Assembly: GCA_947568835.1 (NCBI GenBank)
Contig: OX387602.1
Coordinates: 21,875,021 to 21,939,020 of the forward strand
Source of the DNA: Protonemura montana
Lineage: Eukaryota; Arthropoda; Insecta; Plecoptera; Nemouridae
Reading direction: 5' to 3'
DNA: 64,000 nucleotides
In this document: positions 19,017-29,654 of the stretch, piece by piece
How positions within the stretch are numbered: position 1 is the stretch's first letter
Layout of the letters: each line of letters begins with the position of its first letter
The notes under the pieces: generated by a model
What the model saw: the letters and a program-made list of their open reading frames with translations, nothing else
Told to the model about the DNA's origin: nothing
Database searches by the model: none
Made by a program: the position numbers and the translations under genes

Positions 19017-22000
19017 TTACTCGCAGGTCAGCAAACGAGCCTGCTCGTTGCCCTGTTTCGATGCTGCCTCGCACACTTTCATCTGCTTGGCGAGGACGGC
19101 GCCCACCTTCCTCTCAGCCGTGCATTCGAAGGCGACCACGCCATTGCCGTTGTGCTGTCCGTTCGCCTTCTTGCCGTTAACAGGTCCATCGTTAGAGCAG
19201 CCGTTCGTGTGGCCATTGGAATGGCCATTGGTACCTCCTTTCTTGTTGCCATTTGAGATTTCGTTGACGGTCCCGTTGCTTTTCACGGGTTCAGACGGAA
19301 TGGTCAGAAGGTCGTCGTCGTCCGTCCTGGAGAGGACAGCGCCGGCTTGGGCCAAGATCTCGTCCCATGCAAAGTCCACATCGCGCTCCTCTGTGAGGCG
19401 CGAGCAGATAACGAAGCGGATGACCAGATCCTCTTGCACTTTGGCGGACACGAGGTAAATCTTCTTGCGTGCTGTCAGACGATCGAGTAGTCGCTTCGTC
19501 AAACCGTTGGAACCCTGAGAGAGAAACAAAACTAGGCTATTTTATTGAGACCATATTGGTATAGAGAGAAAGATGTCAGGTTGGGCTGTTAAGGCATGGT
19601 TTTAATAAATTCTTCGATGAAATGAGCATGCAATATTACTAACATCTGACTACAAAATGTATGCTAATCAATTGCATCATTCATAAGGCGAAATACAGGC
19701 TACCATGTACAATGGAAGTTATCGAATTGAAAAGGCGACCGCTTCAGACTTGGGACTCTCGTTCACCTTAAGCCGAAAGCAGACAACGCCCATCGAGACC
19801 CTTGTGACGACGCTGAAACGCTCGTCGGCGTCTGCGAGAGTCTCGAAGCGTTGCGTGAGTGCGATCTGCTTGCGGATGTGAGCTTGCAGACCCGCAACGC
19901 CGTAGATCCTGAGCACCAGCCAGAGCTTGAGGGAGCGGAAGCGCCTTCCTAGCGGGATCTGCCAGTGCCGGTAGTCGGGCATCACGCCCTGTTGGTGATG
20001 CTTCAAGTAGATGCGATCCACGTTAAAAGCATCTACAAGCCACGCCGAGTTCTTCACCCTTAGAAACGAAAATGTGGGCGTTATGGGATACTCTAACTCA
20101 CCGCAAGAAAGTATTTGCTATCTAGAAGAGGCCTCTACTCTTACCACATAGCCGAGCAATCAAAGTTGACCAGCAGCCACTTATGGGGGTTGAAGTTAAA
20201 CGAGTCCGCCATCTCAACGCCCTGCATATGGTGTCTGTACTCCGGACAGATAAATGCCGCGCCTGGAAAAAACCAAGGCTTAGCACGTAAGTATTCCATG
20301 TTCCATACTTCGGTTGTTGCACGCATTTTAACGAAATACAAACGGCAACTCACCTGCGTAGGCGGCGTCGACGTGCAGCCAGATCGCCTCGCGCTCGCAG
20401 ATCTGTCCCAGCTCCTCGAGGTCGTCGAAAGCGCACGTACCCGTCGTACCGAGCGTCGCCACCACCTGGCGTCGACATGGAGGACAAAGGTTAAACACGC
20501 TGCTCGCGAGATTTGAGCTTTAGAGTCCGAGATAAGTAATGGTGGCACACTCACGTAGCACGGGATAAGCCCTTTGGCACGGTCCTCCCTAATAGCAGCC
20601 TCCAGGGTAGGTCCACGCAGCCGGCACTGCGCATCACTACGCAGCAGACGCATCGGCATCGAGCCCAGAAGGCCCGCCTTCTCCACAGAAGAGTTGGATT
20701 GGTCTGCAACAGAGTAAAATAAACACATGTTGCTCCTTTCAACTAAATTTCCACTGTACCATACAAGCATTCACTGAATAGTGAATAAATCGCAGATTTG
20801 ATAAAGTAGGCTATATAACTGATCAATACTAACGGTGTTGTCTCCTATACACATCCCCTGCTTACCCGACGTGTAGGCAACCATCTTCCCTTTGATCGCG
20901 CCCTCCTCCCAGTCTGGGTGTTCGGCTTGGATCTTACGTAGCATACGGTCCTTGGCTGCGAGTAGGCCGACCAGAGTGGCCTCGCTGGCCGATCCCTGGA
21001 AAGGAAGGAGATTAGTAGTTTGCATACCTGTGACGTGGAAAAATTTCAATACGCGCATCGAGGAGGGGATATGTTACCTGTATCACGCCACCGCCGGGAC
21101 CCTCTGAGCAGTTGAGGAACTCTTTGGGAAGCGCCATCAACTTTCCGAGCCAATCCATCATTGCCACCTCCAGCTCCGTGCATGCAGGACTCGTAATCTG
21201 CAATCAAATGGTTGTATGGCAGAGTTGGTCAGTTGGTCACACGTAATCTAGTACATATCTGCCTTAAAAACGGCGACCCATTTGAGAATCCACATGGACC
21301 TGCTAGAGGTCAAAGAAATAACAACCAGGAAACGATTAAGGAATTCTTTACATCGCTGCAGTAAACGATTGGCGAATGGTCTATGTCTGATAAAGCAATG
21401 GGGCAAACGACTGAAATGAGACATTATAATAGTTTCCTTGGATAAGGGGTCATCGATGAAGCAGTGCCATTTTGTTACACAGCCATTTGCCAGACCTATG
21501 GAGATGGCGTAGCAGAGAAAATCTATCTGATTGCCATCTGGTCATCCTGATTACCATCTGGTGCAAGCTCAAACTCCATCCAGCATTGCTAATAAAGCTA
21601 TTAGAATCGTGAATGTGAAATATCCTTCAGCAGCCTATACCCCAGAATAGCGAGCGACGTTGCTTGTGTAACGCCTTACCCAACTGAAGCCCACACAGCC
21701 GATGCCGGCGCTAAGCATCTCGCCTACGATCCCTGGATAGGAGTTGGCGGTCGGGTAGTACGCGTGGAACTGCGGGGAGTGCCAGTGAGTGACTCCAGGC
21801 ATAACGACGCGGTCCATGTCCTTCAGGACGTCCTCCCACTTCTCGCCCTGCTGCGGCGCTTCCCCGGGGATCAGTGGCTGGAGGTAACCAGGAGACACCA
21901 CGGACAATACCGGCCTGCAAAAGAGAGCATGTCCATGAGATTGTGGAATTCTGAGAGGACTGAGAAGTTTGTGGCGTTAGCGTAAAGTGTGCTCGCTAGC

Positions 22001-29654: not shown

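What the first reader, a model, noticed from the sequence alone, without database searches (positions are those of the whole stretch)
19017..29654. Two tandem AAAD paralogs carry the His-to-Asn switch typical of DHPAA synthase
Genes C and D read DQSNSS where gene A reads CQAHSS. In characterised insect enzymes, Asn at this PLP-stacking position converts a decarboxylase into 3,4-dihydroxyphenylacetaldehyde synthase. The flanking residues ([14 protein letters not shown]) also look more like the insect aldehyde synthases than like DDC. The cluster therefore probably makes both amines and reactive aldehydes.
Basis: partly seen in the sequence, partly recalled or inferred. Interest (0 to 1): 0.8.

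Follow-up and report, generated by a model that had tools for sequence, protein, structure and literature searches.

The report
Insect aldehyde synthase plus loop-less copy
An insect dopamine-gene neighbourhood carries two side-by-side copies of a gene for an enzyme thought to turn DOPA-like amino acids into reactive aldehydes; one copy looks like the ordinary working enzyme, while the other is intact as a gene but lacks the active-site lid tyrosine that its near relatives keep.

Summary
Genes C and D (minus strand, 9 exons each) have Asn at position 192, where gene A has His. Of the 225 nearest listed homologs, 103 have Asn192; 102 of these share Lys197 and 102 share Met206, as C and D do. 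C and D fall inside this insect AMD/DHPAA-synthase/AAS clade (100/100 against 15 DDC rows; C+D sisters, 100/99). A is an ordinary insect DDC.

It does not carry over to D. D keeps the PLP site and Asn192 but lacks Tyr332-Leu333 (present in 225 of 225 homologs), its loop being 4 residues shorter. It also has F103A, F309A, R345H, L351A and G352D (human R347 and L353 are sites of inactivating variants). Its changes are enriched in loop2/loop3, which a subunit lends to its partner's active site. Yet D is stop-free, seems constrained (C-D dN/dS 0.17) and shares an apparent gene-conversion tract with C. Best reading: C is a DHPAA/aromatic aldehyde synthase; D is a constrained paralog, probably inactive or altered as a homodimer, possibly a heterodimer partner of C. 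Neither has been assayed.

The parts
19017..22780 (-). Gene C: insect AMD/DHPAA-synthase-type AAAD, 577 aa. Exons 22780-22701, 21914-21680, 21197-21078, 20995-20866, 20703-20555, 20465-20354, 20262-20145, 20058-19767, 19514-19017
   Evidence: Spliced model, all internal introns GT-AG, open frame ending in a stop; 76% identity to best listed homolog P0001
20693..20695 (-). C Asn192 codon (AAC)
20007..20009 (-). C catalytic-loop Tyr332 codon (retained)
23963..29654 (-). Gene D: tandem paralog of C, 566 aa. Exons 29654-29575, 29070-28836, 28525-28409, 27177-27048, 26953-26805, 26299-26188, 25135-25018, 24942-24663, 24442-23963
   Evidence: Spliced model, all internal introns GT-AG, open frame; sister to C 100/99
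26943..26945 (-). D codon (AAC) aligned to Asn192
24837..24905 (-). D altered loop3: Tyr332 and Leu333 deleted, 11 residues where C has 15; R345H, L351A, G352D (C numbering)
   Evidence: contiguous inside exon 8
28842..28844 (-). D Ala at position 103 (Phe, Leu or Val in the 222 homologs with a residue there)
25035..25037 (-). D Ala at position 309 (Phe in 219 of 225 homologs)
28981..29036 (-). D side of the 56-nt identical run (apparent gene-conversion core, exon 2)
21825..21880 (-). C side of the 56-nt identical run (apparent gene-conversion core, exon 2)
2..3208 (+). Gene A: DOPA decarboxylase, 5' part cut off by the window edge; exons 2-121, 518-647, 1206-1354, 1879-2108, 2397-2487, 2578-2778, 2999-3208; His192 at 1214-1216
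4797..5825 (-). Gene B (one large open stretch): flavin amine oxidase, closest to spermine / N1-acetylpolyamine oxidases
   Evidence: PF01593 E 7.4e-47; PDB spermine oxidase 190 bits, N1-acetylpolyamine oxidase 187 bits

Best explanation
The window holds a Ddc-AMD neighbourhood of an insect (perhaps polyneopteran). A is DDC (amine maker). C is a DHPAA/aromatic aldehyde synthase: PLP bound at Lys303 decarboxylates an aromatic amino acid and, because Asn replaces His192, the quinonoid is not efficiently protonated and instead reacts with O2 and water to give the aldehyde, NH3 and H2O2. This chemistry is inferred from characterised relatives and was not shown here. D arose by tandem duplication of C, after its split from the other lineages sampled, and is kept as an intact, constrained gene. 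It has lost parts that a subunit lends to its partner's active site (Phe103 of loop2; Tyr332, Arg347, Leu353 and Gly354 of loop3, human numbering) while keeping most of its own PLP site, so as a homodimer it is probably a dead or strongly altered enzyme.
For: C and D lie inside the Asn192 clade: 65 rows, SH-aLRT 99, 30 rows, 100/100; C+D sisters 97 and 100/99. A lies in the DDC clade beside Anabrus and Gryllus (97/88). C departs at 3 of 118 positions conserved at 97% or more; D departs at 11, of which 9 are private to D and 6 of those 9 lie in loop3, loop2 and loop3 together holding 16 of the 118 (Fisher p 1.6e-4; p 8e-4 if the two deleted residues count as one event). Against the P0001-P0003 majority, 16 of 67 D-private changes fall in loop2/3 (43 of 463 usable positions; p 8e-5, or 5e-4 with the deletion as one event), against 1 of 16 C-private changes. 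The 16 PLP-site and pocket residues listed are the same in D as in C. Constraint: C-D dN 0.20, dS 1.19, ratio 0.17 over 471 codons; neutral drift at 0.3 substitutions per site left 0 of 2000 simulated frames stop-free. Literature: human R347Q and L353P lose activity (PMC12443470, passages); R347' and L353' act in trans (PMC10382914, passages); Asn192 is the main determinant of DHPAAS activity (PMC6494836, parts 1-3 of 7; PMC10380194, passages).
Against: No assay and no expression data. C has Tyr79 rather than the Phe79 of Bombyx DHPAAS, and PMC7497351 (passages) warns that residue 192 does not give a clean switch, so C may make some amine. By PDB score C is closer to Drosophila DDC 3K40 (692 bits) than to the DHPAA synthase 6JRL (622 bits), and D scores 6JRL (539) little above HDC (525). 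Y332F in pig DDC makes DHPAA (PMC7497351), so loss of Tyr332 alone need not kill D. F309A lies in D's own site, not in a lent loop. The dN/dS averages both branches and dS is near saturation outside the apparent conversion tract, so recent relaxation of D is not excluded.
Confidence: 0.75

Rival explanations
1. C and D are both ordinary DHPAA synthases; D's loop differences are tolerated.
For: D keeps Asn192, Lys303, Asp271, His302, Lys197 and Met206. Loss of the Tyr332 hydroxyl in pig DDC (Y332F) still allows DHPAA formation (PMC7497351, passages).
Against: 225 of 225 homologs keep Tyr332, Leu333 and Leu351; D alone has an 11-residue loop (15 in 217 of 225; 14, 16 or 18 in the other 8). The human equivalents of two changed residues, R347 and L353, are sites of inactivating variants.
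Confidence: 0.12
2. D is an enzyme of changed specificity: loss of the aromatic clamp (Phe103, Phe309) opens the pocket for another amino acid or amine, with slow oxidative deamination.
For: Small residues at 309 recur in Asn192 proteins (6 of 103: P0020, P0027, P0028, P0052, P0056 Ser; P0148 Ala, which also has Val103) and in 0 of 122 His192 rows. Aquatica locus tags RN001_008393, _008396 and _008397 suggest a tandem array there, two of the three with Ser309.
Against: Those six keep Tyr332 and Leu351; D goes further and also changes Arg345 and Gly352.
Confidence: 0.2
3. D is a young pseudogene or a gene under relaxed constraint that has not yet collected a stop.
For: End branch 0.44 against 0.11 for C; 67 private changes against 16; departures at positions conserved in all 225 homologs.
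Against: Synonymous divergence from C is high, yet the frame, all 8 introns and the PLP-site residues listed are intact; simulated neutral drift at 0.3 per site left 0 of 2000 frames open.
Confidence: 0.15
4. C and D are tyrosine or histidine decarboxylases that acquired Asn192 independently.
For: No TDC or HDC rows were available for the tree, so this was not excluded by a tree; D scores HDC 4E1O (525 bits) almost as high as DHPAAS 6JRL (539 bits).
Against: PDB scores for C: DDC 3K40 692 bits, DHPAAS 6JRL 622, HDC 4E1O 538, tyrosine decarboxylase 6EEI 454. Lys197 and Met206 match the Asn192 clade and the trees nest C and D in it.
Confidence: 0.02

Closest known systems
Insect 3,4-dihydroxyphenylacetaldehyde synthase (Drosophila AMD, Aedes and Bombyx DHPAAS; EC 4.1.1.107)
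   Same: C: Asn192, Tyr79-Tyr80 as in Drosophila isoform X2, complete catalytic loop, near a Ddc gene
   Different: C: Tyr79 instead of the Phe79 of Bombyx; 577 aa, long low-complexity tail. D: no Tyr332, short loop, Ala103, Ala309, His345, Ala351, Asp352
PonAAS2, aromatic aldehyde synthase of a galling sawfly (makes indoleacetaldehyde)
   Same: P0083, a Euura 'Pontania' aromatic aldehyde synthase and presumably PonAAS2, is in the same Asn192 clade, 63% identical to C
   Different: Substrate preference of C (DOPA, Tyr or Trp) cannot be read from sequence
Insect DOPA decarboxylase (Drosophila 3K40)
   Same: Family and PLP site; gene A belongs here
   Different: His192, Arg197, mostly Tyr79-Phe80; makes amine
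Loop3 variants of human AADC (R347Q, L353P)
   Same: D is changed at both equivalent positions (His345, Ala351 in C numbering)
   Different: Different replacing residues and many further loop changes; D is a paralog, not a disease allele

Membership tests
Insect DHPAAS/AAS (gene C) | Asn at position 192 | tested here: met
Insect DHPAAS/AAS (gene C) | Tyr80, with Phe79 or Tyr79 (commonest in the family, not universal) | tested here: met
   Tyr79-Tyr80; 84 of 103 Asn192 rows have Tyr79, 81 of 103 have Tyr80; Drosophila X2 combination (PMC6494836)
Insect DHPAAS/AAS (gene C) | Phylogenetic place in the Asn192 insect clade apart from DDC | tested here: met
Insect DHPAAS/AAS (gene C) | PLP site and catalytic loop (Lys303, Asp271, Tyr332) | tested here: met
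Insect DHPAAS/AAS (gene C) | Aldehyde and H2O2 from an aromatic amino acid | not testable with these tools
   needs an assay
Insect DHPAAS/AAS (gene D) | Asn at position 192 | tested here: met
Insect DHPAAS/AAS (gene D) | Descent from the same clade | tested here: met
   sister to C, 100/99
Insect DHPAAS/AAS (gene D) | Catalytic loop with Tyr332 and loop3 residues (human R347, L353, G354) | tested here: not met
Insect DHPAAS/AAS (gene D) | Aldehyde synthase activity | not testable with these tools
   needs an assay
DOPA decarboxylase (gene A) | His192, Arg197, place in the DDC clade (positions 79-80 lie outside the window) | tested here: met
Tyrosine or histidine decarboxylase | Groups with TDC or HDC | tested here: inconclusive
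   only PDB bit scores compared; no TDC/HDC rows in the tree

The most novel reading that the evidence does not exclude
D is an obligate heterodimer partner of C. In the C:D dimer only one site works: the one built on D's PLP pocket (Asn192, Lys303, Ala309) and closed by C's loop2 and loop3 with Tyr332. The duplication would thus have made a composite, half-sited aldehyde synthase with an enlarged pocket, and exon-2 gene conversion would keep the shared part of the two subunits matched. In human AADC an R347Q subunit paired with a normal-loop (E227Q) partner gave a heterodimer with 75% of wild-type catalytic efficiency (PMC10958467), so the geometry is workable.
Probability: 0.12. Interest if true: 0.72.

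Novelty: new variant of a known kind. Interest (0 to 1): 0.42.

Why it matters
C by itself only adds one more insect aldehyde synthase to a family already linked to flexible cuticle and, in a galling sawfly, to auxin synthesis. D matters more: if it is functional, it is a natural duplicate of a homodimeric PLP enzyme that has changed above all in what it lends to its partner while keeping its own cofactor site. That makes a concrete test of whether enzyme paralogs can evolve into regulatory or composite-site partners, and it warns that calling DHPAA synthase from residue 192 alone can mislabel non-standard paralogs.

Tried and rejected
Own-genome search for further AAADs and for A's missing 5' end: the genome search answered 'busy' each time, so copy number in the genome is unknown. 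TDC/HDC rows for the tree were not obtained (all 3 homolog searches went to C, D and A); only PDB scores stand in. Idea that B is a monoamine oxidase feeding the pathway: set aside, B scores best with spermine and N1-acetylpolyamine oxidases. Idea that A's Cys189 is abnormal: rejected, 24 of 122 His192 rows have Cys there. Idea that D's missing loop is a splice or frame artefact: rejected, the stretch is contiguous inside exon 8 and the other two frames there show no YLK; an assembly error was not tested. Papers: the listings showed no title or abstract start about a loop-less insect AAS paralog; one search listed 20 of 33 papers, only 10 of 8,575 and 8 of 18,433, and the library is open-access only, so this is no proof of absence. 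One search, meant to document the Drosophila Ddc-amd neighbourhood, listed nothing that I opened. Recalled, from no call: that Drosophila Ddc and amd are close neighbours; that 6JRL is the Aedes enzyme; that 6EEI is a plant enzyme. Changed on checking: A's Cys is at 189, not 191; loop p values are now also given with the deletion counted as one event.

Full report
What was checked. Six-frame translation finds two DQSNSS motifs on the minus strand and QAHSS on the plus strand. I read the three loci in all frames of their strand, printed the splice sites and built spliced models. C has 9 exons (22780-19017, 577 aa) and D has 9 exons (29654-23963, 566 aa), all internal introns GT-AG, both open frames. 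A (2-3208, plus strand) is cut off by the window edge at its 5' end. Asn is residue 192 of C and aligns to 192 in D; A has His.

What the genes are. Three homolog searches (each lists the best 120 of about 8,000 scored hits) gave 225 distinct proteins, so the counts below describe the nearest relatives, not all AAADs. Of these, 103 have Asn192 and 122 have His192. Lys197 is found in 102 of 103 Asn192 rows, Arg197 in 122 of 122 His192 rows; Met206 in 102 of 103 against 15 of 122. C and D carry Lys197 and Met206; A carries Arg197 and Phe206. The careful tree (45 rows: three window genes and 42 hand-picked homologs, 15 DDC rows including A set as outgroup) separates the two groups at 100/100, puts A next to Anabrus and Gryllus (97/88), and joins C and D at 100/99. 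The larger quick tree (94 rows) agrees: C+D 97, Asn192 clade 99, DDC set with A 95. Neither tree resolves where C+D attach inside the Asn192 clade. C's best listed matches are P0001 (76%, no organism given) and Zootermopsis nevadensis P0002 (75%); the clade holds P0083, deposited as an aromatic aldehyde synthase of Euura sp. 'Pontania', and P0006, named alpha methyl dopa resistant protein 1 of Ischnura. The window is therefore from an insect, perhaps polyneopteran (inference, resting mainly on A).

Neighbourhood. A is DDC; B (4797-5825, minus) is a flavin amine oxidase scoring best with spermine and N1-acetylpolyamine oxidases; then C and D. In other insects the locus tags printed with the hits suggest the same Ddc-AAS linkage: Aphidius HCN44_009367 (Asn192) and _009369 (His192), Ampulex KM043_014627 and _014625, Eretmocerus QAD02_015265 and _015268 (inference from tag numbers, contigs not read).

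Gene C. The active-site residues checked fit a working DHPAA/aromatic aldehyde synthase: Tyr79-Tyr80-Asn192, Tyr332, Lys303, Asp271, Phe103, Phe309; C departs at 3 of 118 strongly conserved positions, all far along the C-terminal part (383, 397, 406). PMC6494836 (parts 1-3 of 7 read) reports Asn192 as most important in Bombyx DHPAAS, Phe79/Tyr80 as contributors, and Tyr79-Tyr80 in Drosophila isoform X2, which includes NP_476592.1. PMC3026038 (passages) shows that NP_476592 makes DHPAA and links the gene to flexible cuticle. PMC10380194 (passages) states that all insect AASs have Asn and all AAADs have His there. PMC7497351 (passages) cautions that mutating residue 192 gives only partial conversion. 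C scores Drosophila DDC 3K40 (692 bits) above DHPAAS 6JRL (622 bits) in the PDB, so raw similarity does not separate the two functions. C is most likely an aldehyde synthase, perhaps with some amine; its substrate cannot be decided from sequence.

Gene D. Across 118 positions conserved at 97% or more, D departs at 11, 9 private to D: 133, 157, 309 and, in loop3, 332, 333, 344, 345, 351, 352. Tyr332 and Leu333 are present in 225 of 225 homologs and deleted in D; the stretch 329-343 has 11 residues in D, 15 in 217 of 225 homologs, and 14, 16 or 18 in the other 8. D has Ala351 (Leu in 225 of 225), Asp352, His345, Phe344 and Ala309, and, at the less conserved loop2 positions, Ala103 and Glu104. 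In human numbering 345, 351 and 352 are 347, 353 and 354. R347Q and L353P human enzymes keep their fold and PLP but lose activity (PMC12443470, passages); Arg347' and Leu353' act from the neighbouring subunit (PMC10382914, passages); the loop brings Tyr332 to His192 and Ser193 of the other subunit (PMC9121088, passages). With loop boundaries from PMC10958467 (99-109 and 323-357 human), 6 of the 9 private departures fall in these loops, which hold 16 of the 118 conserved positions (Fisher p 1.6e-4; 8e-4 and 3e-4 at the 95% and 90% thresholds). Two of the six are one deletion; counted as one event the p values are 8e-4, 3e-3 and 1e-3. Scored against the majority of P0001-P0003, 16 of 67 D-private changes are in the loops, which hold 43 of 463 usable positions (p 8e-5; 5e-4 with the deletion as one event), against 1 of 16 for C. 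The 16 PLP-site and pocket residues listed are the same in D as in C; Ala309 is an exception in D's own site.

Is D alive? C and D differ by dN 0.20 and dS 1.19 over 471 codons (74% amino-acid identity). Simulated neutral drift from C's 471 core codons gave 21 of 2000 stop-free at 0.1 substitutions per site and 0 of 2000 at 0.3 and at 0.6. D's end branch is 0.44 against 0.11 for C. So D evolves faster but seems to have been constrained; a recent relaxation cannot be excluded.

Gene conversion. Codons 41-80 (exon 2) are 96% identical at DNA level with synonymous difference 0.15, against 0.47-0.81 in the other windows. The longest identical run is 56 nt; 0 of 10,000 codon permutations reach it (null 99th percentile 36). 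Among amino-acid-identical codons (Met/Trp left out), 31 of 34 inside 42-80 are identical against 147 of 290 outside (p 2.3e-6; the bounds were chosen after seeing the window scan); a run test on such codons is weaker, 79 of 20,000. This points to a C-D conversion covering Tyr79-Tyr80 but stopping short of position 103.

Mechanism. Shown: the sequence changes, the clade, the loop enrichment, the identical tract. Inferred: that C makes aldehyde, that D is constrained, that D's homodimer is inactive or altered. Speculative: that D works only with C, its PLP pocket being closed by C's loops. Human heterodimers make this feasible: E227Q/R347Q has 75% of wild-type efficiency because only one site is damaged (PMC10958467, abstract and passages); PMC9570296 (passages) discusses the same geometry. 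Small residues at 309 in 6 of 103 Asn192 rows and 0 of 122 His192 rows suggest that pocket opening recurs among AAS copies, but those six keep Tyr332.

Verdict. The claim that both genes are typical DHPAA synthases fails for D, which is the more interesting of the two. The paper listings named under Tried and rejected showed no loop-less insect AAS paralog; they were capped and the library is open-access only.

Noticed in passing
214-294 and 25546-25626 (also 4532-4603): tRNA-Pro-like repeats in introns of A and D, 97.5% identical over 81 bp, with a third ARAGORN call of the same type at 4532; ARAGORN tRNA-like genes in the window, probably tRNA-derived SINEs in part.
   Followed up: partly
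34501-50948, minus strand: Possible exons of a CFAP/HYDIN-type flagellar protein: one CFAP47 domain above Pfam's cut-off (37221-37679, E 2e-9) and sub-threshold HYDIN/CFAP65/CFAP74 Ig matches at 40717-41220 and 48652-49107.
   Followed up: no
59659-60879 (+) and 61638-62534 (-): Proteins with long Thr-rich stretches; the first has three CBM_14 chitin-binding stretches, the second no Pfam hit.
   Followed up: no
P0148 (Eretmocerus hayati): An Asn192 protein with Ala309 and Val103 and a loop one residue shorter, in the same species as the standard copy P0072: a partial parallel to D.
   Followed up: partly
about 19017-19322 (C) and 23963-24250 (D): C and D both end in long low-complexity tails (Asn/Gly-rich in C, Asp/Gly-rich in D), roughly 100 residues each; only 4 of 103 Asn192 homologs are as long as D.
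   Followed up: no
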